From positions 1-36,764 of the IMG/VR virus record IMGVR_UViG_3300049919_000088: 36,764 nucleotides of DNA. One strand, given 5' to 3'. This DNA comes from a virus. The notes below the pieces were generated by a model. The model saw only the letters and a list, made by a program, of their open reading frames with translations. It was not told the DNA's origin and made no database searches. Position numbers and translations under genes: made by a program. Numbering within the stretch: position 1 is the stretch's first letter; each line of letters starts with the position of its first letter. Positions 1,458 through 36,764 of this stretch are shown one piece after another.

Positions 1458-1892
1458 ATGGCGACACCATATGAACTCCTACAGGCTCAGGTTAGAGAGC
1501 TTACGCGCGAAAAAAAACATCTCACTGATCAGTTGTGTCAAGCACACAAGGTTCACGAGCAGTATAAGATAGAGAAGCAGCAGAAACAAGACCTGTTGTT
1601 TGCTTGCCTACACACCCTAGGCCCACATGTGCAAATTGAAATCGATAGATTTCATGATTTCTTTAAGGATGCACAATTCGACGGCAATCTCCACATGACT
1701 GACGAAGGCCGGTATGTGGTTCGGCTTCAGTTCTACCAAGAAGGCATAGAGATGCACTGGCGTCGTAAGCTACTTCTTGGAGACACTTCTGTAGGGTCTC
1801 TTGCTCAGCTGCAAGCCAACTTTAATGAAGCTCTGCAACAAAATGCAACGCCACAAGAAGCCTACACACTCGCAATCAACAAACAACTATGA
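1458..1892 (+). CDS. hypothetical protein with N-terminal coiled coil
   Basis: 144 aa. Residues about 5-45 are a charged Glu/Lys/Gln-rich helix with heptad-like leucines (a coiled coil); the rest is a mixed alpha/beta domain. No catalytic motif or family was recognised. The start is the only Met before residue 79, and sits just after the conserved promoter element. The stop overlaps the next start as ATGA, so it heads an operon with the methyltransferase and the nucleotide genes. Confidence 0.75.
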   Translation: MATPYELLQAQVRELTREKKHLTDQLCQAHKVHEQYKIEKQQKQDLLFACLHTLGPHVQIEIDRFHDFFKDAQFDGNLHMTDEGRYVVRLQFYQEGIEMHWRRKLLLGDTSVGSLAQLQANFNEALQQNATPQEAYTLAINKQL

Positions 1893-2761
1893 ATGAATTC
1901 GGAAAAACAGTCGACACCACCTTCCTCTCCATCGAACAAGCAGAGAAGCGTGGATTCCTACATCGAGACTACATTGCACACTGTTTCAGGTGGTCTCATG
2001 TCATTAAGAGGCTCATGCAGAGCCAGCGACACAAGACAGCCCGCATCCTTGATATTGGGTGCGGGCGAGAACTACCTTTTGCAAAGACGCTGTACAGTTC
2101 TAAGATGGTGCCAATTTCATACGTCGGCATCGACGCAGGTAAAATCCTCCCTGAGGCGCTAGAAGCCGTAAGTAAGGGAAAAATGGGAGAGGCCACTAAG
2201 ATCTTCGCTAACACCTGCTTCTCTAGCAAATGGGCCACTGATTACGAGAAAATGTTTACTGACATCATCTGCTTCGAGTGCGCTGAGCATGTAGAACCAG
2301 AAATGCTTAAGGATATGCTCGATGGCATGCTACATGTTCTTCACCTAACAGGCCGTGTCTGGATATCAACTCCTTGCTGGGATTATAAGTCGTGCGCTGC
2401 CAACCATGTTAACGAAATGACGTACGGCGCGTTTGGTGCCATGTGCATGGAAGCTGGATTCATCATTGAGAATGTGCATGGAACATTTGCGTCCATTAGT
2501 GATTACAAGCACAAGATGTCTCCAGCGTATGCGGAAGTCTTTGAAGACCTTCGAGACTACTATGACAGTAATGTCCTCTCAGTTATCTTTGCTCCCATGT
2601 TCCCTGCTCAGTCGCGTAACGCACTTTGGGAACTGAGGAAGCCACGGCCAGGTGAGAAGCCTAATTTTGACCAACTGTGCACAATGCAGAAACCATGGGG
2701 TTCTTCAGCTCACTGGGAAAGCATGGCTCGCGAAAACTGGAAAGATAACTGGCCTCAATAA
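1889..2761 (+). CDS. class I SAM-dependent methyltransferase-like protein
   Basis: 290 aa. It shows motif I ILDIGCGRELPF (residues about 53-64), a post-I acidic residue in YVGIDAG (about 82-88), an acidic motif II/IV segment IICFECAEHVEP (about 128-139) and RVWISTPCWD. This is the Rossmann methyltransferase fold of the Methyltransf_11/23 type. The target is unknown. It lacks the (D/N)PPY motif of amino-DNA methylases and the PC/ENV motifs of C5 methylases, so it is not an ordinary DNA methylase. Its place directly before the nucleotide-modifying genes makes a base or nucleotide substrate possible, though a sugar, protein or capping target is equally open. Confidence 0.75.
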   Translation: MNEFGKTVDTTFLSIEQAEKRGFLHRDYIAHCFRWSHVIKRLMQSQRHKTARILDIGCGRELPFAKTLYSSKMVPISYVGIDAGKILPEALEAVSKGKMGEATKIFANTCFSSKWATDYEKMFTDIICFECAEHVEPEMLKDMLDGMLHVLHLTGRVWISTPCWDYKSCAANHVNEMTYGAFGAMCMEAGFIIENVHGTFASISDYKHKMSPAYAEVFEDLRDYYDSNVLSVIFAPMFPAQSRNALWELRKPRPGEKPNFDQLCTMQKPWGSSAHWESMARENWKDNWPQ

Positions 2762-2847
2762 TTTCTTGTGGATTGGCCAATGGCGGGCCACTGTTAACTG
2801 GACACCGGCAGTCGCCATCGGTGCTTGTTCTACACTTACAAAAAATT

Positions 2848-3279
2848 ATGTCAAATCCGTTTAATCAAAGTGCCGTGCTCTTTACCCCTCTAGATGATAT
2901 CGCTGCGTTTCATGAACGCTTCGGTCTTCAACAAAACAACGCAATCGTTCCAATTGGCGAAGAGCGTGATCAAATTAGTCAGGAAGAATGGGAGCTGCGT
3001 ATTACTCGTCTTGTTGATGAAGTTACTGAAACGCAGACGGCCCACGAAGAAGAAGACGACGAAGAATACCTCGACGGTCTTGTTGATATTGTCTACATCG
3101 CTCTTGGAACTGCCTATCGGCGTGGATGGGATTTCTCTGAAGCATGGGCTCGTGTTCACGGTGCCAATATGCAAAAGATCCGTGGTGAAGCCAAGAACAG
3201 CAAGTATGGCAGCAGCTATGACATCATCAAACCAGAAGGCTGGAAATCACCCTCGCACACAGACCTCGTAACCCCATGA
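2848..3279 (+). CDS. MazG-like / phosphoribosyl-ATP-pyrophosphohydrolase-like NTP pyrophosphohydrolase
   Basis: The ATG at 2848 gives 143 aa; an upstream ATG at 2773 in the same frame adds 25 unconvincing residues. The all-alpha NTP-PPase signature is visible: an acidic helix around EEWELRITRLVDEV, an acidic linker HEEEDDEE, then DGLVDIVYIALGTAYRRGWD and EAWARVHGANMQKI. These enzymes hydrolyse (d)NTPs to (d)NMP and PPi using Mg bound by acidic helices. It is followed by a dNMP kinase (4-base overlap) and a dCMP-hydroxymethylase-like enzyme. In that setting it could play the role of T4 gp56, removing dCTP from the pool, which is inference. General dNTP house-cleaning is the alternative. Confidence 0.8.
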   Translation: MSNPFNQSAVLFTPLDDIAAFHERFGLQQNNAIVPIGEERDQISQEEWELRITRLVDEVTETQTAHEEEDDEEYLDGLVDIVYIALGTAYRRGWDFSEAWARVHGANMQKIRGEAKNSKYGSSYDIIKPEGWKSPSHTDLVTP

Positions 3280-3818
3280 TCCCTCGCTTATTTATTATTG
3301 AAGGCCCAGACAACTGTGGCAAGTCCACCCTCGCACAAGCGATCGCTAATAGGTTCAATGCAGTCTATTGGCGCCTAACTTCAGGACAGGGTCTTTGTGA
3401 GCATGCGGCCATGCGACTCTATCAGTCTAATGCGCTTGATAATGCTGAGGTGAACATTAAAGCAGGTCGAAGCGTGGTGCTCGATCGTCATTGGCCATCA
3501 GATCAAGTGTACGGAACCGTCCTGCGCGGTAAACCATCCATTGATGGCGAGCTACTTGCTGCAGTCGAGCTCCAATGTAGATCAATGAATGTTGTCTACA
3601 TCAACTGCTGGCGGGATAATGCCACACTTGAGCATGCCAAGCAAAAAGACCCTGACCACCCCTATGAGGACGAGGTGTACACAAAAGTTGTTGATGGCTA
3701 TCAAGAGCTGTTTGACGAACTGGGTAAGAAAGCAATGGTGGTCCCCTACTACCTGGATTCATTCATTAAGCAGGAGAATCTTCTTCCTGCATTCCTGGAG
3801 GGCTTGAGCAAACTGTGA
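3276..3818 (+). CDS. deoxynucleoside monophosphate kinase (thymidylate-kinase-like P-loop)
   Basis: 180 aa. The P-loop GPDNCGKST is at residues 10-18 and the LID/acceptor motif LDRHWPSDQVYG at about 69-80, with the DR-plus-Ser arrangement of phage dNMP and thymidylate kinases. The C-terminal half is helical. It transfers phosphate from ATP to a dNMP. It overlaps the upstream MazG-like gene (ATGA) and the downstream ThyA-fold gene (TGATG), so the three are translationally coupled. In T4, gp1 kinase phosphorylates 5-hydroxymethyl-dCMP made by gp42; the same order of steps fits here. Substrate preference cannot be read from the sequence. Confidence 0.82.
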   Translation: MIPRLFIIEGPDNCGKSTLAQAIANRFNAVYWRLTSGQGLCEHAAMRLYQSNALDNAEVNIKAGRSVVLDRHWPSDQVYGTVLRGKPSIDGELLAAVELQCRSMNVVYINCWRDNATLEHAKQKDPDHPYEDEVYTKVVDGYQELFDELGKKAMVVPYYLDSFIKQENLLPAFLEGLSKL

Positions 3819-4621
3819 TGTATTACCCTTCAATAAACGAAGCTTGGTTAGGTACACTTAATCAGATCCTAACAACAGGTGAGCTTGTAGAGGTACGGGG
3901 AACTAGGTCGCTGGAGATTATTGGGCACTCAGTAGAATTCCCGATGGGTCAGTCGATCCTAACAATTAAGGATCGTGTAATCAACCGCGACTTCATGTTC
4001 AGAGAAGCATGGTGGATCTTATCTGGTCAGAATAGATTAGACTTATTAGAAACCCATGCTCCATCTTATTCGAAGTTCTCTGATGATGGGATTCGTCTAT
4101 CAGGGGCCTATGGGCCCAAGATTGTAGATCAGATCAGGTTTGTAGTAGATACATTAAAGCATGATCCGTATTCCCGTCAAGCGGTTATCAATATCTGGAG
4201 AGAGAATCCTCGACCTTCAAAGGATATTCCATGCACCTTATCTGTCCAGTTTCTGATCAGGGATGGGTACATTCACACTGTTGTTAATATGCGTAGTAAC
4301 GATGTGTGGCTTGGAATGCCTTACGATGTGTTTAGTTTTACCATGCTTACCTGCCAAGTAGCTTTGGAGCTTGGTGGAGACCTACAGCTCGGCATGATGT
4401 TCCATCATGCAGGATCCAGGCATATTTACTTCAAGGATTCAGATAAGGCAAAATCAAGCGTGACATCGAACATATCTGTTCAATTTGATCAGACCAACTG
4501 TATCTGTCTTAAGCAAATTAAGTCAGTAATATCTTCGACAGGATTTTTTCATCAGATATTACATGATCGTTCAGTTCAACGTTTACCACAACTACCCAAA
4601 CTACTCACATGGCTACAGTAA
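3818..4621 (+). CDS. ThyA-fold pyrimidine enzyme, probable dCMP hydroxymethylase (or methylase)
   Basis: 267 aa from ATG 3818 (GTG 3815 is an alternative). ThyA-family residues are present: E63 (REAWWILSG), SGAYGP, DPYSRQ, catalytic C139 (DIPCTLS), R159 and D162 (MRSNDVWLG), and H202/Y204 (RHIY). The Asn that recognises dUMP in thymidylate synthase (E. coli N177, LGLPFN) is Asp here: D170 in LGMPYD. In T4 gp42 and in engineered synthases an Asp at this site selects dCMP. The stretches VQFLIRDG and VVNMRSNDV also look like gp42 as I remember it. So the likely product is 5-hydroxymethyl-dCMP or 5-methyl-dCMP using methylene-tetrahydrofolate. Plain thymidylate synthase remains possible. It overlaps the ligase start by 13 bases. 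Confidence 0.8.
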   Translation: MYYPSINEAWLGTLNQILTTGELVEVRGTRSLEIIGHSVEFPMGQSILTIKDRVINRDFMFREAWWILSGQNRLDLLETHAPSYSKFSDDGIRLSGAYGPKIVDQIRFVVDTLKHDPYSRQAVINIWRENPRPSKDIPCTLSVQFLIRDGYIHTVVNMRSNDVWLGMPYDVFSFTMLTCQVALELGGDLQLGMMFHHAGSRHIYFKDSDKAKSSVTSNISVQFDQTNCICLKQIKSVISSTGFFHQILHDRSVQRLPQLPKLLTWLQ

Positions 4622-5424
4622 CCCCCATGCTTGCAAGGAATTATGACCCAACAAAGCACAATATCATCGGCTGGGACGCGTCTGAGAAACTCGATGGAGT
4701 TAGGGCTCTTTGGGATGGGTCCCGGTTCTGGACCCGTAATGGGAATATTCTGGATGCTCCTTATCGGATTACTGGTTCTCTGGCTAAAAGGTTAGATCCC
4801 CTCCAGATGGGGAGATGCCTCGATGGTGAGCTATATATCGGCCGAGGTCGTTTCAATGAATGCTCTGGAATTGTTCGGCGCCACGGTGACGAATGGATTG
4901 GTATTGAGTATCACGTATTCGACTACACTTGTAACTTCGGGCGCGATTCAGACCAGCGGCAAGACGATCTTAAAAGTATCCTTCAGCTCATTGATCTTCC
5001 GTTCGTTAAGCTTGTGCCGCAGATACGGATCAATAGTCTAGCTCACCTTACCGAACTGTATGACGAAGTAATCAGGCAAGGGGGTGAAGGTCTCATGCTC
5101 AAGAATCCCAATGCAGAATACTTAGAGTGTGGACCCACTAAGAAACGCTCTCCAAATCTACTCAAAGTAAAATCATTCCATGAAACAGAAGCTATTGTTA
5201 CTGGTTACGTTCCCGGGCTTGGCAAGTATAGGGGTCTTATCGGGGCTCTCATTTGCCGACTACCTAGCGGGAAATCCTTTAACTGTGGTAGCGGTCTATT
5301 GGATAGTGAGCGGGCTCATTATTCTTATTTTGCCGGTCAAACCATAACAGTAAAGTATTTCGAAATGAGCAAGGACGGAGTACCACGTTTCCCAATTTAC
5401 AAAGGAATCAGACACGATGCCTAA
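4609..5424 (+). CDS. ATP-dependent DNA ligase (minimal)
   Basis: 271 aa. Nucleotidyltransferase motifs: I, EKLDGVRA with the adenylated Lys at residue 27; III-like, FDYTCNFGR; IV, GGEGLMLKNP; V, LLKVKSF. An OB-fold domain covers about residues 195-271. The size is that of small phage and bacterial minimal ligases without a DNA-binding domain. It seals nicks left by the polymerase and nuclease encoded next door. The start overlaps the ThyA-like gene and the end overlaps the polymerase gene by 8 bases. Confidence 0.92.
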   Translation: MATVTPMLARNYDPTKHNIIGWDASEKLDGVRALWDGSRFWTRNGNILDAPYRITGSLAKRLDPLQMGRCLDGELYIGRGRFNECSGIVRRHGDEWIGIEYHVFDYTCNFGRDSDQRQDDLKSILQLIDLPFVKLVPQIRINSLAHLTELYDEVIRQGGEGLMLKNPNAEYLECGPTKKRSPNLLKVKSFHETEAIVTGYVPGLGKYRGLIGALICRLPSGKSFNCGSGLLDSERAHYSYFAGQTITVKYFEMSKDGVPRFPIYKGIRHDA

Positions 5425-7330
5425 GCATAAAGACATTCCAGGTCAATTACCTCTATGGGAACCTGCATCTGACTGGGTTGCACCTGATCAGTTTCCTATC
5501 TTCACTACGAAGACTCTCGGGTTTGACGTAGAATCAAGAGACCCGTACCTCACTTCTCGTGGCCCTGGATACATCCGGGGAGATGCAAGTGTCATCGGGT
5601 ATTCTCTTAGTGATGGTCAATCATCATTTTATTTCCCGTTTGGTCACGCCTATGGGGATAATCTCAATCGTGAACGGTGCTTGCGCTTCCTTAACTCAAT
5701 TACATCAGATCCTGCAATCACTCTGATCGGTGCCAATACCATGTATGAACGAGAAGCCCTATGGTCTCTCGGAATGGAAGTAAACTGTAAAATATACGAC
5801 GTACAAATAGCGGAACCGCTTATCAATGAAAACATACGAAATGGGACAGCTCTGGAGAAGCTCGGAAAGAAGTATCTAGAGCAGGGAAAAAATGAGGAAG
5901 GCTTGGTTGAGGCTGCTCGTGCTTTTGGTGTCGATCCCAAGGGTGGCCTATGGCAATTGGCACCTAAGTATGTAGGCAAATACGCTGAGTGGGACGCGTG
6001 GGCCCCTATACATATATGGGCCAAACAGATGGAAGAGATACGAAAACAAGGGCTACAGCGAATTCTGGACCTCGAATTGGAAGTGCAACCTATTCTGTGG
6101 CTCATGCGTTGTGGAGGAATACCGGTTGATGTGGAGCAAGCAAAACTGGCTGCAGATAAATTAGAACTGGAACGAGATGAACTCATTACACAGCTCACTT
6201 TGGAGTATCAAGTCGGAGGTCTACCGAGACTGGATATCTGGTCAGGTCCTATCCTTGCTCGCTACTGCGATCATCATAAAATATACTACCCTAGAACCCC
6301 TAAAGGTAACCCCTCATTCGCCAAAGACTTCCTTGAGACGTCTAGCCATCCGTTCTTCAAGTCGATTAGACACGCAAAGGAACTTGATCGTCTCGCTGGA
6401 ACGTTTATACGCAATTGGATCATTAACAATGCCATCGATGGTAGAGTCCACCCGCAATGGAAGCAACTCGCATCAGACACTGGCGGCACAAAGACAGGTC
6501 GAATGGCGGCGTCGGATCCGAACCCACAACAAGTACCAAAACGTACGAAAGCAAGCAAAGTCATCCGTCCGCTCTTTCGCGCACCAAAGGGGAAGATGTG
6601 GGCCAAACTAGATTACAGCCAGCAAGAACCGCGAATACTTCTACATTTTGCTTATCGTATGGGATTGGATGGAGCAGCAGAGGCGCGTCAGCGGTATGTC
6701 GATGATCCTGAAACTGACTTCTACAATCTCATGATGGAGATGGCTAATATCGAACGTACTCCTGCTAAGGATCTGTACCTAGGCAGGTGTTACGGAATGG
6801 GTGGAGAAAAGCTAGCAGCCAAGCTTAAATGCAATGTAGAAGAAGCCTATAAAATACTCGCCAACTTCGATGCAAAACTACCGTTCATTAAACAGTTGTC
6901 AGAGAAGTGTGAGCAACTCGCTAACTCACGTGGATTTATCAAGACCCTGTCTGGCCGGAAGCGACACTTTGACCAATGGGAGCCAGCAGACCGAAAGGCA
7001 GCTGCTCGGTTGGAGAAAGATACTTTCTCTGTCAACTCCCTGGCAGAAGCCCACGCCAAGTGGCCTGGAATTTCCATACGCAGATCAGATACACGACTGG
7101 CGCTTAACTCACTCATCCAGGGCAGTGCCGCAGATATGACTAAAGAGGCAATGGTCAGGGTCTATTCAGCTATGGGTCTCGTTCCGTGTATGCAGGTGCA
7201 CGATGAGCTCAACTACATTATTGATAATTACGATCAGGCATTAGAGATTAAACACCACATGGAAAACTGTGTGGACTTAACTGTTCCAATCAAAGCCGAT
7301 CTTGATTGGGGCGACGCATGGGCAACATAA
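5417..7330 (+). CDS. polA: family A DNA polymerase with 3'-5' exonuclease domain
   Basis: 637 aa, T7-type size. Exonuclease: ExoI FDVESR (D37, E39), ExoII ANTMYERE (Glu in place of the usual Asp), ExoIII YAEWD. Polymerase: motif A KLDYSQQEPR (D399), O-helix motif B RTPAKDLYLGRCYG (R447, K451), motif C QVHDELN (D596). The residue equivalent to E. coli F762 / T7 Y526 is Leu455, the variant found in many environmental phages and tied to altered ddNTP discrimination. No primase or 5' nuclease domain is fused. It is the replicative polymerase of the phage, within a run of overlapping replication genes. Confidence 0.95.
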   Translation: MPKHKDIPGQLPLWEPASDWVAPDQFPIFTTKTLGFDVESRDPYLTSRGPGYIRGDASVIGYSLSDGQSSFYFPFGHAYGDNLNRERCLRFLNSITSDPAITLIGANTMYEREALWSLGMEVNCKIYDVQIAEPLINENIRNGTALEKLGKKYLEQGKNEEGLVEAARAFGVDPKGGLWQLAPKYVGKYAEWDAWAPIHIWAKQMEEIRKQGLQRILDLELEVQPILWLMRCGGIPVDVEQAKLAADKLELERDELITQLTLEYQVGGLPRLDIWSGPILARYCDHHKIYYPRTPKGNPSFAKDFLETSSHPFFKSIRHAKELDRLAGTFIRNWIINNAIDGRVHPQWKQLASDTGGTKTGRMAASDPNPQQVPKRTKASKVIRPLFRAPKGKMWAKLDYSQQEPRILLHFAYRMGLDGAAEARQRYVDDPETDFYNLMMEMANIERTPAKDLYLGRCYGMGGEKLAAKLKCNVEEAYKILANFDAKLPFIKQLSEKCEQLANSRGFIKTLSGRKRHFDQWEPADRKAAARLEKDTFSVNSLAEAHAKWPGISIRRSDTRLALNSLIQGSAADMTKEAMVRVYSAMGLVPCMQVHDELNYIIDNYDQALEIKHHMENCVDLTVPIKADLDWGDAWAT

Positions 7331-7791: not shown

Positions 7792-7829
7792 TAATGCGCG
7801 ACCAATATCACGCAGCAACACCAAATAAC

Positions 7830-8360
7830 ATGAGCGACACAACACTAGTTAATCCCCTAACCGGGCTACCAATCGAAGATGCTTCTATCCAATCACTCTC
7901 TGAGCTTGTTGATGAACAAGCTCAGCTTGAAGAGGAGATTAGCAGCATGAATGAAATCCTTAAGAACATGGGTGCACGCATCAAATACCTTTCAGAGGTT
8001 CTTGTTCCTAATAAGTTGGACGACCTCGGCATGAGTTCTATCAAAATGGCTAATGGCCTCAAGGTTGAAGTTAAGTCGTTCTATAACTGCAAGATCCTCA
8101 ATGAGCAAGCATTTGCGTGGCTCGATGAGAACGGTCACGGCGGCTTGATTAAGACGAAGGTCGTGCAGGAGTTCTCTCGCACTGATCGTGAGAAAGCAAT
8201 TGAGTTTGTTAAGGAAAATCCGCAGTTCAAATTCGAACAAGGTATCCACTACCAAACCATCACAGCCTTTACTAAGGAAGTCTATACTCGGAATGAGACG
8301 CTCCCTGAGGAGTATTTCCAGGTATTCCAAGGTAGGAAAACCAGACTCTCACTGAAGTGA
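7830..8360 (+). CDS. phage coiled-coil protein (Gp157-like), function unknown
   Basis: 176 aa from ATG 7830, whose leader (ACACCAAATAAC) resembles the A/C-rich leaders of other genes here. ATG 7794 would add 12 residues and lie at the predicted transcription start. Residues about 20-55 are a Glu/Gln/Leu coiled coil (ELVDEQAQLEEEISS). The rest is an alpha/beta domain with LGMSSIKMANGLKVEV and WLDENGHGGLIK, seen in replication modules of many environmental podophages and siphophages and loosely like Gp157. A role in recombination or DNA protection is often suggested but not shown. Confidence 0.65.
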   Translation: MSDTTLVNPLTGLPIEDASIQSLSELVDEQAQLEEEISSMNEILKNMGARIKYLSEVLVPNKLDDLGMSSIKMANGLKVEVKSFYNCKILNEQAFAWLDENGHGGLIKTKVVQEFSRTDREKAIEFVKENPQFKFEQGIHYQTITAFTKEVYTRNETLPEEYFQVFQGRKTRLSLK

Positions 8361-8435
8361 AACAGATTCTGATCCTCTGGCAGGCTGGACAGAGCATAAA
8401 TACGCCTGCTATTTCTCCTAACATATACAAACAAG

Positions 8436-9191
8436 ATGGCTAAAAAAACAGACACACAAGAAGCAGTAGCAGCATACGACTGGGATAACTATCAGGGCAA
8501 TACTGGCCTGGAAAATCTCACTAACAAGGACCTGGGAATCCCAATTCTTCAGATCATGCAAAAAGGATCGGCTGAGGTCGATGTAGATCATGAAGACCAC
8601 GCCTCCAAGAAAATCGAAGGAGTTAAGGTCGGTGACATCATCAACAGTGTCACTCGCAAGATCCTTACTCAACCAGTAAAAGTAGTTCCCTACTTCTACA
8701 GTTTGGTCTATGTCGAATGGCGTTCCAAGCAGAATGGCGGTGGCATCGCTGCTACCCATATTGAGGAAGCCATTCTTCGTCAAACCACACGCGACGATAA
8801 GAACAACGATCTGCTTCCAAATGGAAACAGCATTGTTACAACAGCCTATCTGTTCGTGCGTATTATTCAGGATGGACTGGAACCGGAAGATGCTCTCATC
8901 GCAATGAGCAGCACGCAGCTTAAGAAAGCTCGCATGTGGCTCAACATGATGAAGAACTTTCGCGCCGGGAATGGAAACACCCTGCCGATGTTTCATCGCT
9001 GCTACTTTCTCACGACGATCCCAGAGTCGAATCAGAAGGGTACATGGCGTGGATGGAAAGTGGAGCCCGCTCCTCTACCAGTTGCTGACGCAAACCTTAT
9101 TGCTGGGCTTGTTCAAGCAGTCAGGCATGCCTCAGGAAATGCAACGGCATTAATCGGTAATTCTCCCCAAGTGGACACAGATATCGTCTAG
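8436..9191 (+). CDS. phage replication-module protein, candidate ssDNA-binding protein
   Basis: 251 aa. A flexible acidic N-terminus (about 1-35) leads to a beta-rich domain: IPILQIMQKGSAEVD, KVGDIINSV, VKVVPYFYSLVYVEW, GNSIVTTAYLFVRI, and a C-terminal AMSSTQLKKARMW helix. I associate this layout with a phage family found beside the Gp157-like protein and primase, often suggested to bind single-stranded DNA. That link is from memory and no catalytic residues are visible. A hairpin terminator follows the gene. ATG GCT AAA after an A/C-rich leader is the same start context as the 948 gene. Confidence 0.6.
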   Translation: MAKKTDTQEAVAAYDWDNYQGNTGLENLTNKDLGIPILQIMQKGSAEVDVDHEDHASKKIEGVKVGDIINSVTRKILTQPVKVVPYFYSLVYVEWRSKQNGGGIAATHIEEAILRQTTRDDKNNDLLPNGNSIVTTAYLFVRIIQDGLEPEDALIAMSSTQLKKARMWLNMMKNFRAGNGNTLPMFHRCYFLTTIPESNQKGTWRGWKVEPAPLPVADANLIAGLVQAVRHASGNATALIGNSPQVDTDIV

Positions 9192-30990: not shown

Positions 30991-31581
30991 TTACGTTCCT
31001 GGGTCTCGAACATAGCGGCCTAAACTTGTGCGAGCACCTATTAAGTCATATGATTCGAAAGTAGGTTGTGAGTTTTCTGTTGACTGCACAAATTTTGCCA
31101 TTGGCATCGTATTCTTGAATCCTTGAAAAGCCTCTGCTCTCGCTGTTTCAGATTCAGTTAAATACCTAGCAAGCATATAGCCAAGATACCACTCAAGAGC
31201 TTCTGTGAATAGGGAATCTGCGTTAGTAATGTCTATAGTGTCTTCTACGTACTTCAGATAAATAATATCTGAATTAGCAAGCAAGACGCTACCTTCAACT
31301 TTATGTGGACCTGAATAGTCAACAAGCTCAACGATCCGAAGAAGATTGGATGGGAGCTGTAATTGGTAGTCATACTCAAAGGCAGGAGCTTCTGGAAGGG
31401 GGGCGAGGATGGTTCTACGAGATGCGAATCCCCAAGGGTATAGCCGCAAAACATATTGTCGAGCCTTACTGAATTCTGAATTGCAAGCCTTAGCTTCCCT
31501 AGTCCCTTCGCTTAGAGACTGTATTGTTGGAACTCCAATTTTTAGGAGTGCTCCATTGCAGATTGAAAGGTCAGTTGGCAT
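30991..31581 (-). CDS. tail tubular protein A (gatekeeper/adaptor), T7 gp11-like
   Basis: 196 aa. It starts MPTDLSICNGALLKIG and contains RQYVLRLYPWGFASRR and a YDYQLQLPSNLLRI segment, standard for gp11-type proteins that ring the portal and attach fibres. Length is typical. It is preceded by a hairpin that separates it from the capsid genes. Confidence 0.92.
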   Translation of the reverse strand: MPTDLSICNGALLKIGVPTIQSLSEGTREAKACNSEFSKARQYVLRLYPWGFASRRTILAPLPEAPAFEYDYQLQLPSNLLRIVELVDYSGPHKVEGSVLLANSDIIYLKYVEDTIDITNADSLFTEALEWYLGYMLARYLTESETARAEAFQGFKNTMPMAKFVQSTENSQPTFESYDLIGARTSLGRYVRDPGT

Positions 31582-31598
31582 GGTCTAAAAGGGAAAGC

Positions 31599-31632
31599 CA
31601 TGCACGACCAGGGCGACATCCGATCGTGCATG
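31599..31632 (-). terminator. hairpin between head and tail genes
   Basis: 9-bp perfect arms CATGCACGA (31599-31607) and TCGTGCATG (31624-31632) with a 16-base loop. On the minus strand it is followed by CTTTCCCTTTTAG. It lies in the 82-base gap after the small head protein and probably reduces read-through from the abundant capsid mRNA into tail genes. Confidence 0.6.
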
Positions 31633-31663
31633 ACAGGTTTCTCCTAAGCGATGGCAAGAGAAA

Positions 31664-32149
31664 TTAGTCGACGACGTAGAGAATCACCCCTTGGATCTCA
31701 ACAGAGTCAGAAGGATTAGCTCCCTCAAACAATGCGTAGACTTCGAGTTCTTTCTCAGTTTCGTAGTACAGGTAGGGGGTCTCTTCAAAAAGATCGACCT
31801 TACCAGCAGCAGCAACATCCAAATTGGTTGCAAGAGCATCTGGATCATCAGCCACTGTCAGTGCTTTGTCAAGATAGCCGGATCCGTCCAAAGCACGGAG
31901 ACCGACATCAAGAGTCACTGCGGCACCAAAGGCTCCGAATTTTGCATATCCGCTAATGAGGCGAGCCCCTGCTGGAAGCTGACAGAGACGGACATCGTCG
32001 TTCTGAGCAACCACCGCTGCCACAGCATCTCTCGATGCAAGGAATTGGAAGAAAGCCATACGAACACGTCCGTAAAGTTCATTCGATTTTAGAGGCGCGT
32101 GTCCTTGCGCTTCCCATTGCTTAACTTGTTTAGAATCGTGGCGAGCCAT
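31664..32149 (-). CDS. small head protein (putative capsid decoration or stabilising protein)
   Basis: 161 aa. It starts with a basic helix (MARHDSKQVKQWEAQGH), then beta-strands with Gly/Ala (LISGYAKFGAFGAAVTLDVG) and an acidic C-terminus (SDSVEIQGVILYVVD). It is directly downstream of the major capsid gene, 32 bases away, the place for decoration or head-fibre proteins in related podophages. No enzymatic motif. The family link is from position and general look. Confidence 0.65.
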   Translation of the reverse strand: MARHDSKQVKQWEAQGHAPLKSNELYGRVRMAFFQFLASRDAVAAVVAQNDDVRLCQLPAGARLISGYAKFGAFGAAVTLDVGLRALDGSGYLDKALTVADDPDALATNLDVAAAGKVDLFEETPYLYYETEKELEVYALFEGANPSDSVEIQGVILYVVD

Positions 32150-32181
32150 GATATTGATTTATGTGTTGTTTATTGTTGCGA

Positions 32182-33084
32182 TTACTTAGTTTCGTCGCAG
32201 AGAACGCGAACGACTTGCTCTTCCCACATACGCGTGGCGCCGAAAGAACCGCACACATAGACTTGCGTCGAGTTGCGCTTATCACGACGAGGTCCGATGT
32301 CCGTCATGACCTCATCAGCCACGCCGAGTAGCAGACCTTGGCGTGTCCAAACAGGACAGGAACGGATGTCTCCGGTCTTGGGGAGGATGGAAGGATGGAC
32401 GCGGATGAACTTGATCCCCATGAAGGTATCGATGGTGCCATTGACTAGAGCCTTAACAGCAGCAGTATCGATGTCAGTCATCTTGTCTTGGCGGAGCATC
32501 GAGTTGATCTGCCAGGCGGTAACCGCCATGTAGAGCTCCTCAGCAGCGTCCCAGTCAACTGCTTCCTCAAGATCGAACATGAGACGGATTTTCCGCAGCT
32601 TGTCGATGGTGAGGTTGTGATTACCAGCCCCGCCAGTATCAGTATAGGTAACTGCTACATCCTGGGTTGCAGGGAAGAGGATGCTGGTTTGACCAGTCTT
32701 GCCTGAATAGGCTGTCGCAAAGGCCGCACGAACAATCTCCTTGTCCATCGAACGACCAAGCGCAAACACTGCGTTGGTAGCATAAGAGGAGGTTGGATCT
32801 GCGAGCATGCGCAGTTTGTCCTTGCGGTCGATGAGATCTGCCCAGTCATAATCTTCCGTCGCATTGCGCCGGCGATCATGAGGAGTGGAGATGAGCGGAG
32901 TATCGCTGTGGCGATTCTTGACTTTTACCGCTTCGGTAGGCCCGATGCGATCGAAGAAATCAAATTCCGAATTTTGGGATTCGACGCGCACAAAAGGGCG
33001 AAGACGAGAACCACGTTGTTGGAACTTGATTTGGATATTGGAATGGTAGCTGTTGACCAGCGCGGTGTCTACTTCGTAGGACAT
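32182..33084 (-). CDS. major capsid protein
   Basis: 300 aa from ATG 33084 (MSYEVDTALVNSYHSN); a further upstream ATG at 33138 adds 18 residues that look like leader sequence. Core motifs RHSDTPLISTPHDRRR, YDWADLIDRKDKLRML and DPTSSYATNAVFALGR are those of the HK97-fold capsid protein of many podophages. An A/C-rich leader (ACCACACCACATCAA) precedes the start and two RNA hairpins lie upstream. Located between scaffold and decoration genes. Confidence 0.92.
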   Translation of the reverse strand: MSYEVDTALVNSYHSNIQIKFQQRGSRLRPFVRVESQNSEFDFFDRIGPTEAVKVKNRHSDTPLISTPHDRRRNATEDYDWADLIDRKDKLRMLADPTSSYATNAVFALGRSMDKEIVRAAFATAYSGKTGQTSILFPATQDVAVTYTDTGGAGNHNLTIDKLRKIRLMFDLEEAVDWDAAEELYMAVTAWQINSMLRQDKMTDIDTAAVKALVNGTIDTFMGIKFIRVHPSILPKTGDIRSCPVWTRQGLLLGVADEVMTDIGPRRDKRNSTQVYVCGSFGATRMWEEQVVRVLCDETK

Positions 33085-33190
33085 TTGATGTGGTGTGGTT
33101 GTGGAATGAATAAACGTTCCGGCTCCAATAGTCCACACGCGTGGGTCTTCGCCTCGCTCTTACGTCAGCTAGCGTACGGCCTGCACCGTA

Positions 33191-33232
33191 ATAGATTGGG
33201 CTCATCAGAGTAATCCAATAAGACCAATCTAT
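33191..33232 (-). other. hairpin in the capsid leader
   Basis: Perfect 9-bp arms ATAGATTGG (33191-33199) and CCAATCTAT (33224-33232) around 24 bases. It lies in the 195-base gap between scaffold and capsid, the longest gap of the minus arm. It may be an RNase processing or mRNA-stability site for the abundant capsid message. Confidence 0.45.
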
Positions 33233-33244
33233 GTTGGAGGTGTG

Positions 33245-33272
33245 CGGGTGTAAAATACTTTTTTACGACCCG
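33245..33272 (-). terminator. hairpin directly after the scaffold gene
   Basis: CGGGTGTAAAA (33245-33255) pairs with TTTTACGACCCG (33261-33272) with a one-base bulge and a 5-base loop, starting 8 bases from the scaffold stop. There is no T tract after it on the minus strand, so partial termination or processing is as likely as full termination. Confidence 0.45.
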
Positions 33273-33279
33273 TGAAAGA

Positions 33280-34203
33280 TTATTCTTTCTTGCCAGGGAA
33301 GGCCTTCTGGTGAAGTGCCAGCCATGTATCGACAGCTCCTTTGTGGCCGGGGTGTGAAGCAGTATTGAGAGCATCTTGGAAGTCCTTGTCCATTTTGACA
33401 CGCTCAATTTCTTGTTGCGCAGCCATGGATGTACCCCCAAATTGGCTCCCACCGTTTTCTCCGCCGATAGCGTCGTCATCAAGAAGCTTGATTCCGAGGT
33501 TGTGCATCAGCTTAATAAAGTCAACATCATTACCAAGACCTGCCTCATCAATTTTGGCCATAAGTTCTGGGCTGCCATATTGCGTAACAGTAAGCTGTGC
33601 TGTCTTAACATTGTTGTCGAATTTGGGACCCCACTCTTGTTTGAGAGTGGCGATACCTTGTTGCTTCGTAGCATCAACCTGCGCTTGTTGGATATCATAT
33701 CCGGAGTTTACTTGACCAAGATACGCATCAAGAACACCTTTGCCCTGAGCCTCAGACAGGCCCAGTTTATGGAGTTCGCCTTGCATGAAGCTAAGAACAT
33801 TTGAATCGACTAGGCCTTCAGATTTTACAGCAACTGTTGGAGCATAGGCAGTGGCCTCAGCAGGGCGACCTAATTTCGTAAAGAACTCAGTGCGTTCTGC
33901 ATCAGTTGCTTTCTCGCCAGGGAGCTTAATAACATTCGCACCCACAAGCGACTTAGTGTCGATCGCAGATTTGACGAAGCTATTGATGTCTTTAGACTGG
34001 GCAACATAGGGGTTTGTCTGGTATTCTGGTGCAAGAGTGGAGTACCAGGGTTTGTTTTCTTCACTGCTCGCTAATCCTCCAAGGATGCTTTCACCTCCAA
34101 GGATGCTTTCACCTCCAAGGATGCTTTCACCTCCACCTGAGCCTCCACCTGAGCCTTCGTCTTCAGGTGCGCGAAGAAATCTATTCCATCGGTTAATTAT
34201 CAT
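33280..34203 (-). CDS. scaffolding protein
   Basis: 307 aa. Acidic/Gly-rich N-terminus (EDEGSGGGSGGG) with three copies of GGESIL, a central helical region (TDAERTEFFTKLGRPAEATAY, typical of podophage scaffolds) and a basic C-terminal end (WLALHQKAFPGKKE) suited to binding capsid protein. It sits between portal and capsid genes, as expected. It overlaps the Bbp19-like gene by 11 bases. Confidence 0.87.
   Translation of the reverse strand: MIINRWNRFLRAPEDEGSGGGSGGGESILGGESILGGESILGGLASSEENKPWYSTLAPEYQTNPYVAQSKDINSFVKSAIDTKSLVGANVIKLPGEKATDAERTEFFTKLGRPAEATAYAPTVAVKSEGLVDSNVLSFMQGELHKLGLSEAQGKGVLDAYLGQVNSGYDIQQAQVDATKQQGIATLKQEWGPKFDNNVKTAQLTVTQYGSPELMAKIDEAGLGNDVDFIKLMHNLGIKLLDDDAIGGENGGSQFGGTSMAAQQEIERVKMDKDFQDALNTASHPGHKGAVDTWLALHQKAFPGKKE
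34076..34129 (-). repeat. three tandem 18-bp repeats in the scaffold gene
   Basis: Unit CCTCCAAGGATGCTTTCA (plus strand) repeated exactly three times, encoding ESILGG units. Two 12-bp CCTCCACCTGAG units (34130-34153) encoding SGGG follow. Perfect copies imply recent slippage. Confidence 0.9.
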
Positions 34204-34456
34204 GTGCGTTTTCTATTTCTTGTTCTAGTTCAGTTTCGTCCTTAAACGTCGCCTTGACGATTGAGAGCACGAGTCGTTGTGCGCCAGTATTGCGCAAAGT
34301 TTCTTTGTCATCTGAGGAAGCAACAGGTGTAGTCACACATCCTTTTTTCATAAGATAGCGGAGCACTTGTTTTCCCTGATCAGATGTGAAAATGATTTTG
34401 CAGTTACGCTTGAAAGCAAGGTAATCTGAAACTTCTGAGATTGGGTTACGTCTCAT
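34193..34456 (-). CDS. Bbp19-like structural protein
   Basis: 87 aa. The segment from about residue 15, FKRNCKIIFTSDQGKQVLRY, to RLVLSIVKATF fits the Bbp19-like phage domain (a small helical protein first described in Bordetella phage BPP-1), which lies between portal and scaffold in many podophages. The N-terminus is basic. ATGA overlap with the portal gene. Confidence 0.7.
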   Translation of the reverse strand: MRRNPISEVSDYLAFKRNCKIIFTSDQGKQVLRYLMKKGCVTTPVASSDDKETLRNTGAQRLVLSIVKATFKDETELEQEIENAHDN

Positions 34457-36051
34457 AGTCCAAGAGCTTGTGGTGAGATTCCAGCATCAGAGAGATTCTT
34501 GATTGCCTTGGAAGCAGGTTCCGCCATTTGAGTAACTTGAGCTGCTTGCTCTTGTTGCGCCTTGGCCTCATTGTTTGCTTGCATCTCTTCTGGTGAGAAG
34601 AGAATCTTCTGGGTAGTGCCCATTGCATCGGCAAGTTCTCTCGAATATGCTTCCCAGTTAACGATGTCCATAACTGCGGGATTGATTTGTGCAGAAGGAA
34701 TAAGTCGTTGGATGTAGCGATCCATTGCGAATGCACGCATACCGGTCTGGGCGCGGGCAGCTGGGGAGGTATATTCTAGCTTTAGTTCGCCAAAATTCTT
34801 TGGTGGGGGTGGGAGTAGTCCGTTGCGGCCAAGCAGCATATAGGACAAAGCAAGTGAAGGTCCAAGTAATTCGGCTTCCTGTCTACCAAGCATTGGTGCA
34901 ACAAGTCGCAACTTCCGCTCACTGCGGTCCTGAGCTTCGTACGCTGTCATCTCGACGTTCTCTTTCTCCAACTTCATTAAGTCGTTGTAGAAATACTTAC
35001 GGATGGCCTCGCGCTTTTGCTCCGCCTTATTCTCAGGAATTTGAAATCCGCGTGAGACCTCAAGAGTTTCCACCGGATCGGAGCCAGGCTCCTTGTAGTT
35101 AACTGCACCTGGGCCAGTCTTCAGTGGAACAAGAAAGGCCTCAGAGGAAACGATGAGTGGGGGATCAGTGGCCTTGCTGACAGCCTTAAGCAGCTGATAC
35201 TCGAGGCGATTAAGCATCTTGATATCTGGCAGTGCCTTAAGCGCAGGAGAGCGACCCCACACTTCTGTAGACATCTTCACCCAACGTGGGCAGTGGTATG
35301 GGAACCAATCATACCCGCCTAGGCGCAAAGTCTCCTTAGTATTCTCGCATACCCAAATAGATGCGTAATTCTTAACTGGGCGTACGTGCTTCAGGAACTG
35401 CTTATCCTCGCGCGGAAAGACAAGGTGCACAATCGTAAACTCTTTGTCTGCGCCTTTTTGAAGTAATTCTGAAAGCTTGGGTGGAATCTTATCAAATTCT
35501 TGGGAAACTTGCCGACCAGTCATTAGGACCCGGCGAATAACAGTGTCAACCATCCGCTCCGAATTCTCCTTGAGGTAACAATCAGCAAGAGCAAACGTCT
35601 TAAACCGCAATCCATCTTTCCAGTATTGGTACACCACAGATGTACCAAAGGATCCGAGATCCAAATAAGCTTCATTGAGTGCTTGGGTATACCCAGAAGA
35701 AGAAGAGGAATAGTGGTGGTAAATGATGTTGCTTACTTCTTCACACCACAGATTTACTTCGCGATCGTGAGAATATCTGGAATCTAGTGGACGCAGCTCA
35801 AACCAACGATCTGTTGGATTTGTGAGAAACGAATGAAGGAATGAACTGAATTCTTCCAAAGCATCGATAGCCGTAGAATCGTAGATCTGATTGGAGCGAT
35901 CCTGACCTGGAGACTTGCGTCCAGTAAAGTCATCGGCATTAGGCCGCACGTAATCAACGATCTGTTGGAATTGACTATCCCACGTTGACCGCGTGTTTTT
36001 CGCGGAACTATACAACTGAAGGCATTCAGTAGCTACGTTGTCTTCTGGCAT
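34453..36051 (-). CDS. portal (head-tail connector) protein
   Basis: 532 aa. The N-terminus has RSTWDSQFQQIVDYVRPN and IYDSTAIDALEEFSSFLHSF, followed by PTDRWFELRP. Later comes GRSPALKALPDIKMLNRLEY, the usual core of T7-type connectors. A C-terminal Gln/Ala-rich helix follows, with MGTTQKILFSPEEM. Length is normal. It forms the dodecameric ring for DNA packaging and tail attachment. It starts as TAATG on the stop of the preceding small gene. Confidence 0.93.
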   Translation of the reverse strand: MPEDNVATECLQLYSSAKNTRSTWDSQFQQIVDYVRPNADDFTGRKSPGQDRSNQIYDSTAIDALEEFSSFLHSFLTNPTDRWFELRPLDSRYSHDREVNLWCEEVSNIIYHHYSSSSSGYTQALNEAYLDLGSFGTSVVYQYWKDGLRFKTFALADCYLKENSERMVDTVIRRVLMTGRQVSQEFDKIPPKLSELLQKGADKEFTIVHLVFPREDKQFLKHVRPVKNYASIWVCENTKETLRLGGYDWFPYHCPRWVKMSTEVWGRSPALKALPDIKMLNRLEYQLLKAVSKATDPPLIVSSEAFLVPLKTGPGAVNYKEPGSDPVETLEVSRGFQIPENKAEQKREAIRKYFYNDLMKLEKENVEMTAYEAQDRSERKLRLVAPMLGRQEAELLGPSLALSYMLLGRNGLLPPPPKNFGELKLEYTSPAARAQTGMRAFAMDRYIQRLIPSAQINPAVMDIVNWEAYSRELADAMGTTQKILFSPEEMQANNEAKAQQEQAAQVTQMAEPASKAIKNLSDAGISPQALGL

Positions 36052-36308
36052 TAGCCTCCGAGGATAGATGTTGAGCCGAAGCCAGTATCGAGTCCTGTGC
36101 TTAAGATTGTTGATCCCGCTCCACGAGTACGTTTGTTTGGGTTCCGCTCTATAGAAGAGGCAACACTAGTGGCAAGAGCCCCTTTACGTGAAGGTGGAAT
36201 TGGTGGTGGTGGTGGATCTTTTTGCTTGGCTCCTTTGTGGAGTCGAGCAAGTTTGCCATTTGGCAGGAAGAGGTCTCTGTCGAAATGTGGTCCGTATTCA
36301 AAGTCCAT
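36051..36308 (-). CDS. small proline-rich pre-portal protein
   Basis: 85 aa. A poly-Pro stretch (KDPPPPPIPPSRK) is followed by a basic region (NPNKRTRGAGS) and a tail TILSTGLDTGFGSTSILGG. Small proteins with a proline run and an RG-STIL-type tail commonly sit between terminase and portal in podophages. The final SILGG echoes the ESILGG repeats of the scaffold, perhaps a shared binding motif. The first 160 bases overlap the preceding gene in another frame. Confidence 0.72.
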   Translation of the reverse strand: MDFEYGPHFDRDLFLPNGKLARLHKGAKQKDPPPPPIPPSRKGALATSVASSIERNPNKRTRGAGSTILSTGLDTGFGSTSILGG

Positions 36309-36646
36309 CGTCGTAGGTGATTGAGATTATAGGAGCGGGGTACGTTGTTTCTTTCCCATCCGATAAATTCGAGAGGGTAAGGGAGAAGTGAGAAAAGAAA
36401 CTTGAAATCGCCAACAAGCAAATATACCCACCAACAATTAGGATTGTTTGTGTTATAGCCAGGGTTAGTAAGGTGAACATAATTGTCAGCCCTATTAACT
36501 GGTCGCAACATTGCCAGATTGGATGCATCTTTGTAGACAATAGCATGTGGGTTATTCAGATGTAAATAAAAATCTTCATCAAAGCTGCGAGCACACTCTT
36601 CTTGTAGATAAACTTGTTTGGCGCGCCAGACAGGGTCTTTATCCAT
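36149..36646 (-). CDS. pre-portal hypothetical protein
   Basis: 165 aa from ATG 36646, which overlaps the terminase stop by 8 bases; ATG 36664 is an alternative. Recognisable motifs are EDFYLHLNNPHAIVYKD, AMLRPVNR, WWVYLLVGDFKFLFSLLPYP and LEFIGWERNNVPRSYNL, a small protein regularly found before the portal gene in phages of this type. Function unknown; a host-reception or packaging accessory role is possible. The last 50 or so residues run through the next gene in a different frame and look low-complexity (HHHHQFHLH), so they may be a read-out rather than conserved sequence. Confidence 0.72.
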   Translation of the reverse strand: MDKDPVWRAKQVYLQEECARSFDEDFYLHLNNPHAIVYKDASNLAMLRPVNRADNYVHLTNPGYNTNNPNCWWVYLLVGDFKFLFSLLPYPLEFIGWERNNVPRSYNLNHLRRWTLNTDHISTETSSCQMANLLDSTKEPSKKIHHHHQFHLHVKGLLPLVLPLL

Positions 36647-36764
36647 TGAGGTAGTCGTATTCATCTTGAGTTTGAGTTTCTCGCTTTTCCTTCCTTCCAC
36701 GTGAACTATCCTTAGATCGCCAAGCAAAGTAGCGGAACATGTCAGCAGGGTGAGAAGACCAGTC
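36639..36764 (-). CDS. terminase large subunit, C-terminal end (partial)
   Basis: The last 41 residues of a protein cut by the window edge: DWSSHPADMFRYFAWRSKD and then a charged tail. The S/H-ADxFRY motif is the final part of the RNase H-like nuclease domain of large terminases. It is the first gene of the minus-strand virion operon in this window, and the rest of the ATPase lies beyond base 36764. Confidence 0.82.
   Translation of the reverse strand, partial: DWSSHPADMFRYFAWRSKDSSRGRKEKRETQTQDEYDYLNG

What the first reader, a model, noticed from the sequence alone, without database searches (positions are those of the whole stretch)
2848..4621. Likely cytosine-modification cassette: NTP pyrophosphohydrolase, dNMP kinase and Asp-substituted ThyA enzyme
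The sequence shows three coupled genes: MazG-like, P-loop dNMP kinase, and a ThyA-fold enzyme whose dUMP-selecting Asn is Asp (D170, LGMPYD). In T4, gp42 (dCMP hydroxymethylase) has an Asp at the equivalent site, gp1 phosphorylates its product, and gp56, an all-alpha NTP pyrophosphatase, removes dCTP. The same three activities sit in one small podophage operon. Inference: virion DNA carries 5-hydroxymethyl- or 5-methyl-cytosine as a defence against restriction. No glucosyltransferase was seen, so a free or differently decorated base is expected.
Basis: partly seen in the sequence, partly recalled or inferred. Interest (0 to 1): 0.82.

Follow-up and report, generated by a model that had tools for sequence, protein, structure and literature searches.

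The report
Phage cytosine-modification cassette with methyltransferase
A small bacterial virus carries a block of neighbouring genes that very probably makes a chemically altered form of the DNA letter C as an armour against bacterial DNA-cutting enzymes; the block is of a known kind, but it holds a fourth gene, a methyltransferase, that travels with it almost without exception and may add a further decoration not yet described.

Summary
Window 2848-4621 encodes, in overlapping genes, a MazG/PRA-PH pyrophosphohydrolase, a TMPK-like kinase and a ThyA-fold enzyme with all catalytic residues and Asp at the dUMP-selecting position (D170, from the ATG at 3818). The Asp is present in every readable ThyA-like gene of 67 IMG/VR loci. 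The enzyme keeps folate- and deoxyribose-binding residues. It lacks Trp80, has Asp at position 143, has no DHFR neighbour, and its best structural match is the CMP hydroxymethylase MilA. I therefore favour a dCMP hydroxymethylase over a dCMP methylase (Xp12 type) or a flavin 5-hydroxy-dCMP synthase. Cultured phage AXL3 has the same block; its DNA resists 35 of 37 restriction enzymes, among them two (KpnI, Eam1105I/AhdI) that cut 5mC DNA. Of 80 viral loci chosen by that gene alone, 74 contigs carry the Asp-type ThyA gene and the other 6 break off first. It sits where one related cassette has a carbamoyltransferase of the 5hmC type. My reading: a hydroxymethylcytosine cassette whose further decoration may be O-methylation (unproven). 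A known kind of system in a new variant. No chemistry was measured.

The parts
1889..2761 (+). class I SAM-dependent methyltransferase (PF13489; Hen1/UbiG/CmoM-like), proposed decorating enzyme of the cassette
   Evidence: PF13489 30 bits, cut-off 27; profile hits Hen1 structures; E130, E133, H134, H173 invariant in 81/81; Asp-type ThyA gene on 74/80 contigs found by this gene, the other 6 truncated; 12 synonymous vs 1 non-synonymous difference from sibling L016
2848..3279 (+). MazG/PRA-PH-type NTP pyrophosphohydrolase, proposed to turn dCTP into dCMP
   Evidence: PF01503 34.3 bits, PHROG_671 2.1e-23; on one reading frame with the kinase in L028 and L169
3276..3818 (+). P-loop, TMPK-like deoxynucleoside monophosphate kinase, proposed to phosphorylate the modified dCMP
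   Evidence: PHROG_761 1.7e-12; TIGR00041 1.1e-8, below its cut-off; profile hits yorR and thymidylate kinases; 38% identical over 142 residues to the kinase at the same place in ct3Et533
3818..4621 (+). Asp-type ThyA-fold enzyme (alternative GTG start at 3815), proposed dCMP 5-hydroxymethylase; catalytic Cys139 and Asp170 counted from the ATG
   Evidence: PF00303 95.1 bits; residue tables; AlphaFold model pLDDT 88.5; best structural match MilA Z 28.8
4609..5424 (+). ATP-dependent DNA ligase in the slot where most relatives carry dCMP deaminase
   Evidence: PF14743 and PF01068; both families are associated with cytosine-modified contigs in PMC8670742; no PF00383 in the window
5417..7330 (+). 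family A DNA polymerase that would incorporate the modified nucleotide
   Evidence: PF00476 8e-53; near the cassette in most relatives

Best explanation
The genes at 1889-4621 are a cytosine-replacement cassette. Proposed steps: (1) the MazG/PRA-PH enzyme cleaves dCTP to dCMP, removing normal C and supplying substrate; (2) the Asp-type ThyA-fold enzyme adds a one-carbon unit from methylene-tetrahydrofolate to C5 of dCMP and releases 5-hydroxymethyl-dCMP; (3) the TMPK-like kinase makes the diphosphate, a further kinase (host or unspecified) the triphosphate; (4) the phage DNA polymerase incorporates it in place of dC; (5) the linked SAM methyltransferase decorates the product, most plausibly by O-methylating the hydroxymethyl group, before or after incorporation. 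The result protects phage DNA from restriction enzymes with C/G in their sites. Shown here: gene identities, order, active-site residues and linkage. Inferred: every activity, the hydroxymethyl outcome, and all of step 5. The confidence refers to steps 1-4 with hydroxymethylation of dCMP, not to step 5.
For: Asp at position 177 in all readable ThyA-like genes of the 67 IMG/VR loci and of those linked to the methyltransferase. Asp at this site switches ThyA-fold enzymes to cytosine and is enriched on cytosine-modified contigs, with PRA-PH, DNA ligase and dCMP deaminase as co-enriched or co-occurring families (PMC8670742; PMC5175136). Ser167/Arg126 are the deoxy-type pair, unlike ribo-preferring MilA. 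Folate-pocket D169, L172, G173, Y209 are kept, and are changed in RB69 5-hodCMP synthase. W80 is replaced, as in SPO1 dUMP hydroxymethylase and MilA; D143 is shared with T4 gp42, SPO1 gp29 and MilA, while ThyA has Leu and the Xp12-like enzyme Asn. No DHFR in 38 of 38 other records, one in the Xp12-like DLP4. Best fold match MilA. One relative (L060) has a carbamoyltransferase (PF16861/PF02543) in the cassette, an enzyme type shown to act on 5hmC. Same four-gene order in AXL3, whose DNA only AATT/TTAA cutters digest (PMC7504290); KpnI and Eam1105I fail on it, whereas KpnI and AhdI fully cut 5mC Xp12 DNA (PMC7653180). AXL3 and PW916 also carry ThyX. Pyrophosphohydrolase and kinase share one frame in L028 and L169.
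Against: No chemistry was measured on this phage. T4 gp42, a true hydroxymethylase, keeps Trp80, so its loss is not required for hydroxymethylation; position 143 rests on few characterised enzymes and may only track ancestry. The tree's deep forks are weakly supported. A phage can use the host DHFR, so absence of DHFR is weak evidence. The window lacks dCMP deaminase and, as far as found, a terminase, so the record is probably incomplete and a further modifying gene may lie outside it. AXL3 is only about 39% identical in the ThyA-like protein and 30% in the methyltransferase. TS differences from sibling L016 are too few to show strong constraint (3.5 synonymous, 6.5 non-synonymous).
Confidence: 0.72

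Rival explanations
1. The enzyme is a dCMP 5-methyltransferase (Xp12 type): it reduces the methylene intermediate with tetrahydrofolate and the virion carries 5-methylcytosine.
For: A single Asn-to-Asp change turns ThyA into a dCMP methylase (literature cited in PMC8670742); the Xp12-like phage DLP4 has NTP-PPase, Asp-ThyA and dCMP deaminase genes side by side.
Against: Trp80, kept in ThyA and in the Xp12-like enzymes, is missing; the Xp12-like enzymes group with ThyA (100/97), not with the window enzyme; DHFR lies next to the DLP4 enzyme but in none of 38 other records; AXL3 DNA resists KpnI and Eam1105I, whereas KpnI and AhdI cut 5mC DNA.
Confidence: 0.13
2. The enzyme is a flavin-dependent 5-hydroxy-dCMP synthase (RB69/AfhB type), and the virion carries a decorated 5-hydroxycytosine.
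For: Such ThyA-superfamily enzymes exist (PMC13390438) and 9iqc/9iqu are among the top structural matches (Z 24.9 and 24.3).
Against: RB69 has Asn, Val, Val and Phe at positions 169, 172, 173 and 209, where the window enzyme keeps Asp, Leu, Gly and Tyr like the folate enzymes; MilA fits better (Z 28.8).
Confidence: 0.06
3. A plain nucleotide-supply operon: a thymidylate synthase with changed specificity, thymidylate kinase and a house-cleaning pyrophosphatase, with no modified base in the DNA.
For: Database names are thymidylate synthase and thymidylate kinase.
Against: Asn177 is replaced by Asp in every readable relative of the 67-locus set; AXL3 and PW916 carry ThyX as well; AXL3 DNA is restriction-resistant; near-obligate linkage to a methyltransferase.
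Confidence: 0.06
4. A rival to step 5 only: the methyltransferase is not a decorating enzyme but acts elsewhere (for example on RNA 3' ends like Hen1, on tRNA like CmoM, or on a small molecule) and is co-inherited for another reason.
For: Its nearest sequence relatives among solved structures are Hen1 chains and the top fold match is the tRNA enzyme CmoM. One strong relative in a bacterial MAG (L167) has no ThyA gene nearby.
Against: It stays with Asp-type ThyA genes across 25 clusters at 60% identity and in two gene orders; two other gene families that occur with this cassette are not found in any of the 80 methyltransferase loci.
Confidence: 0.45

Closest known systems
Phage T4 gene 42 dCMP hydroxymethylase pathway (gp42, gp1, gp56)
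   Same: Asp at the ThyA N177 position, catalytic Cys, an NTP pyrophosphatase plus a dNMP kinase plus a ThyA-fold enzyme
   Different: Different sequence clade, TMPK-like kinase, PRA-PH/MazG pyrophosphatase, genes contiguous, no glucosyltransferase found, a SAM methyltransferase present
MilA, CMP 5-hydroxymethylase of mildiomycin synthesis
   Same: Closest solved structure (Z 28.8, 34% identity over 250 residues); Thr after the catalytic Cys, Asp at 177, Asp at 143
   Different: MilA prefers ribo-CMP through Ala176/Lys133; the window enzyme has the deoxy-type Ser/Arg pair
Stenotrophomonas phage AXL3 (gp31-gp30-gp29-gp28) and Pseudoxanthomonas phage PW916
   Same: Same order methyltransferase, NTP-PPase, kinase, Asp-type ThyA; AXL3 DNA resists enzymes with G/C in the site (PMC7504290)
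   Different: dCMP deaminase follows instead of a ligase; siphovirus-type phages; also encode ThyX
MetaGPA contigs with 5hmC carbamoyltransferase (PMC8670742)
   Same: Asp-type thymidylate synthase, PRA-PH, DNA ligase and deaminase families linked with cytosine-modified phage DNA; a carbamoyltransferase sits in the same slot in relative L060
   Different: The proposed decorating gene in the window is a SAM methyltransferase
Xanthomonas phage Xp12 / Stenotrophomonas phage DLP4 5mC pathway
   Same: NTP-PPase, Asp-type ThyA and dCMP deaminase adjacent (DLP4)
   Different: ThyA-like clade with Trp80, adjacent DHFR, no kinase or SAM methyltransferase of this family found next to it

Membership tests
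Folate-dependent dCMP hydroxymethylase (function class) | ThyA fold with catalytic Cys, Glu58, Tyr94, Arg126, Ser167, Asp169 | tested here: met
Folate-dependent dCMP hydroxymethylase (function class) | Asp at the ThyA N177 position (cytosine selection) | tested here: met
Folate-dependent dCMP hydroxymethylase (function class) | Product is 5-hydroxymethyl-dCMP, not 5-methyl-dCMP | not testable with these tools
   only indirect: loss of Trp80, Asp143, no DHFR neighbour
T4 gp42 clade | Groups with T4 gp42 in the ThyA-superfamily tree | tested here: not met
   T4 gp42, L080 and L078 form a 100/100 clade without the window enzyme
Canonical thymidylate synthase ThyA | Asn177 | tested here: not met
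   Asp
Xp12-type dCMP methylase | Groups with DLP4/DoCa6, keeps Trp80, DHFR adjacent | tested here: not met
   (Xp12 itself is not in the collection; close relatives were used)
Flavin-dependent 5-hydroxy-dCMP synthase (RB69 type) | Changed folate-pocket residues (Asn169, Val172, Val173, Phe209 in RB69) | tested here: not met
   one reference sequence only
Pfam PF01503 PRA-PH (all-alpha NTP-PPase) | Score over the curated cut-off | tested here: met
   34.3 vs 21.3 bits
Pfam PF02223 thymidylate kinase | Score over the curated cut-off | tested here: not met
   23.3 vs 27 bits; PHROG_761 thymidylate kinase 1.7e-12
T4 gp1 dNMP kinase | Detectable sequence kinship to T4 gp1 | tested here: inconclusive
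   Not among the 60 best PDB chains shown for the kinase profile; no fold comparison was made
Pfam PF13489 Methyltransf_23 | Score over the curated cut-off | tested here: met
   30.0 vs 27 bits
Bacterial Hen1 (TIGR04074) | Score over the curated cut-off | tested here: not met
   window protein not listed; AXL3 homologue 28 vs 340 bits
Bacterial Hen1 | Metal-ligand set ExxEH plus a downstream His | tested here: met
   E130, E133, H134, H173 invariant in 81 of 81; from my own knowledge UbiG-type enzymes share much of this motif, so it is not specific

The most novel reading that the evidence does not exclude
The cassette makes a cytosine modification not yet described in DNA, as far as I could find: the linked SAM methyltransferase O-methylates the 5-hydroxymethyl group of hmdCMP, hmdCTP or hmC-DNA to give 5-methoxymethylcytosine, as the methyl counterpart of the glucosyl and carbamoyl decorations of 5hmC. 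It would be widespread (374 methyltransferase relatives in IMG/VR, of which 80 were inspected).
Probability: 0.3. Interest if true: 0.8.

Novelty: new variant of a known kind. Interest (0 to 1): 0.58.

Why it matters
Phage DNA bases decide which bacterial defences work, and 5hmC-modifying enzymes are used in epigenetics. The report ties a restriction-resistant cultured phage (AXL3) of unknown modification to a defined four-gene block and names one gene whose product can be assayed in a tube. If the methyltransferase acts on 5hmC, it adds a third kind of decoration of phage 5hmC after sugars and carbamoyl, with a large natural family already in hand.

Tried and rejected
Palindrome avoidance in the window: only GTAC is clearly low (0.61 of expected), six-base palindromes 0.88 of expected; no control genomes were run, so it says nothing. 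A Hen1 identity for the methyltransferase: the metal-ligand motif fits, but the NCBIfam Hen1 model is not reached and the structural aligner ranks many class I methyltransferases alike (CmoM Z 19.1, HEN1 Z 16.1). A C5- or N4-cytosine DNA methyltransferase identity: no such Pfam family hits and the Cys of the STPC motif is not invariant. The ~340-aa PHROG_14998 protein found in other cassettes could not be named. Xp12 itself (MT664984) is not in the phage collection, so DLP4 and DoCa6 stood in. The preprint on 5-hydroxycytosine synthesis is not held, and supplementary restriction tables for 5hmC DNA could not be read. A text search for 5-methoxymethyl, cytosine and phage found no paper.

Full report
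The observation. Three ORFs lie at 2848-3279, 3276-3818 and 3815/3818-4621 with stop-start overlaps. Pfam gives PRA-PH for the first and thymidylate synthase for the third; the second is a P-loop kinase that matches the PHROG for thymidylate kinase.

Active site. In an alignment with E. coli ThyA, T4 gp42, SPO1 gp29, MilA and relatives, the enzyme keeps E58, Y94, R126, C146, R166, S167, D169, H207 and Y209 (E. coli numbers), has Thr at 147 and Asp at 177. The Asp is present in every readable ThyA-like gene of the 67 IMG/VR loci found with the window protein. Positions 177 and 147 are the two that best separate modified from unmodified contigs in the MetaGPA study (PMC8670742). Ser167 and Arg126 are the pair that favours deoxynucleotides over ribonucleotides (PMC5175136).

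Methyl, hydroxymethyl or hydroxyl. Three Asp-type chemistries are known, so I compared all. The Xp12-like methylase (DLP4, DoCa6) groups with ThyA and keeps Trp80, and in DLP4 it lies near a DHFR gene; the window enzyme does none of these, and DHFR is absent from all 38 other records tested. The flavin 5-hydroxy-dCMP synthase of RB69 has changed the folate-pocket residues that the window enzyme keeps. With hydroxymethylases it shares Asp at 143, and its best structural match is MilA (Z 28.8 against 24.9 for the flavin enzyme and about 24 for ThyA). T4 gp42 keeps Trp80, so that residue alone does not decide. In a second alignment the region of Trp80 was gapped, so the residue there depends on the alignment; what is stable is that the Trp-containing motif is replaced by an FSDDG-type motif. 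I put hydroxymethylation first, at 0.72.

Surroundings and relatives. The same block recurs in many phages, mostly with dCMP deaminase and a family A polymerase downstream. In L028 and L169 the pyrophosphohydrolase and the kinase lie in one reading frame, which supports their coupling. In the window and in its 97% sibling L016 the deaminase slot holds an ATP-dependent ligase; the window and its nearest relatives show no deaminase at all, though the records may be incomplete. Both ligase Pfam families are associated with cytosine-modified contigs in PMC8670742.

The missed member. The gene at 1889-2761 is a SAM methyltransferase (PF13489). I searched IMG/VR with its own profile, without reference to the ThyA-like gene: of 80 loci, 71 have an Asp-type ThyA gene within the flank (70 readable as Asp, one cut off before that position), three more (L105, L136, L139) have one elsewhere on the same contig, placed as if across the start of a circular sequence, and the other six contigs end soon after the methyltransferase. 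The gene order varies (before the pyrophosphohydrolase, or right after the ThyA gene), and the loci fall into 25 clusters at 60% identity. In 84,980 bacterial and archaeal genomes only five strong relatives were found; three have the ThyA gene nearby, one contig ends too soon, and one (L167) is an exception. The gene is under purifying selection (12 synonymous to 1 non-synonymous change against L016). The AlphaFold model (pLDDT 84) has the class I methyltransferase fold; sequence profiles point to Hen1, the structural aligner to CmoM, which methylates a C5 side chain of tRNA uridine (the function is from my own knowledge). The Hen1-type metal ligands are invariant in 81 of 81, but such a motif is not specific.

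The decorating slot. In L060 a carbamoyltransferase with both Pfam domains lies directly before the pyrophosphohydrolase, where the methyltransferase lies in the window; an enzyme of that kind carbamoylates 5hmC (PMC8670742). Other cassettes have a ~340-residue PHROG_14998 protein of unknown function, in several of them between pyrophosphohydrolase and kinase. None of the 80 methyltransferase loci has either of these. In the 67-locus set two loci (L021, L022) carry PHROG_14998 together with a distant methyltransferase of another subgroup. This pattern suggests interchangeable decorating enzymes on a shared hmdCMP core. It is descriptive; the loci are related and no formal test was made.

Experimental anchor. 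Phage AXL3 has the same four genes in the same order. Its DNA was cut by only two of 37 enzymes, both with A/T-only sites (PMC7504290). KpnI and Eam1105I failed; KpnI and AhdI (same site as Eam1105I, own knowledge) fully cut 5mC Xp12 DNA (PMC7653180), and KpnI and Eam1105I partly cut DNA of the Xp12 relative AXL1 (PMC9206674). So the AXL3 base is probably not plain 5mC. Whether it is 5hmC or larger cannot be told from what was readable.

What is shown and what is not. Shown: gene identity, residues, order, linkage, conservation. Inferred: all activities, the hydroxymethyl product, the role of the methyltransferase, and protection of this phage. The window is a virus record without measured DNA chemistry.

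Noticed in passing
window 4609-5424 and L016, L084: ATP-dependent DNA ligase occupies the place between the ThyA-like gene and PolA where most relatives have dCMP deaminase; no PF00383 hit in the window group.
   Followed up: partly
L052:4182-5213, L059:1167-2174, L021:4381-5421: A ~340-aa PHROG_14998 protein of unknown function in Asp-ThyA cassettes that lack the methyltransferase; many of these loci also carry a PF00145 C5-cytosine DNA methylase.
   Followed up: partly
L060:3410-5095: NodU-like carbamoyltransferase directly before the pyrophosphohydrolase of an Asp-ThyA cassette, like the 5hmC carbamoyltransferase of PMC8670742.
   Followed up: partly
L028:2864-3853 and L169:6896-7948: Pyrophosphohydrolase and kinase matches lie in one reading frame, an apparent gene fusion.
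   Followed up: no
window 31000-36764: No terminase was recognised (PF03237 search empty, though that family also misses it in complete relatives), so the right end of the record may be truncated.
   Followed up: partly
window, whole: GTAC is found at 0.61 of its Markov expectation, the lowest of the 16 four-base palindromes; no control was run.
   Followed up: no
window 7794-9191: Two neighbouring genes match the Pam3 phage gp33- and gp34-like families (PF23984, PF23977).
   Followed up: no
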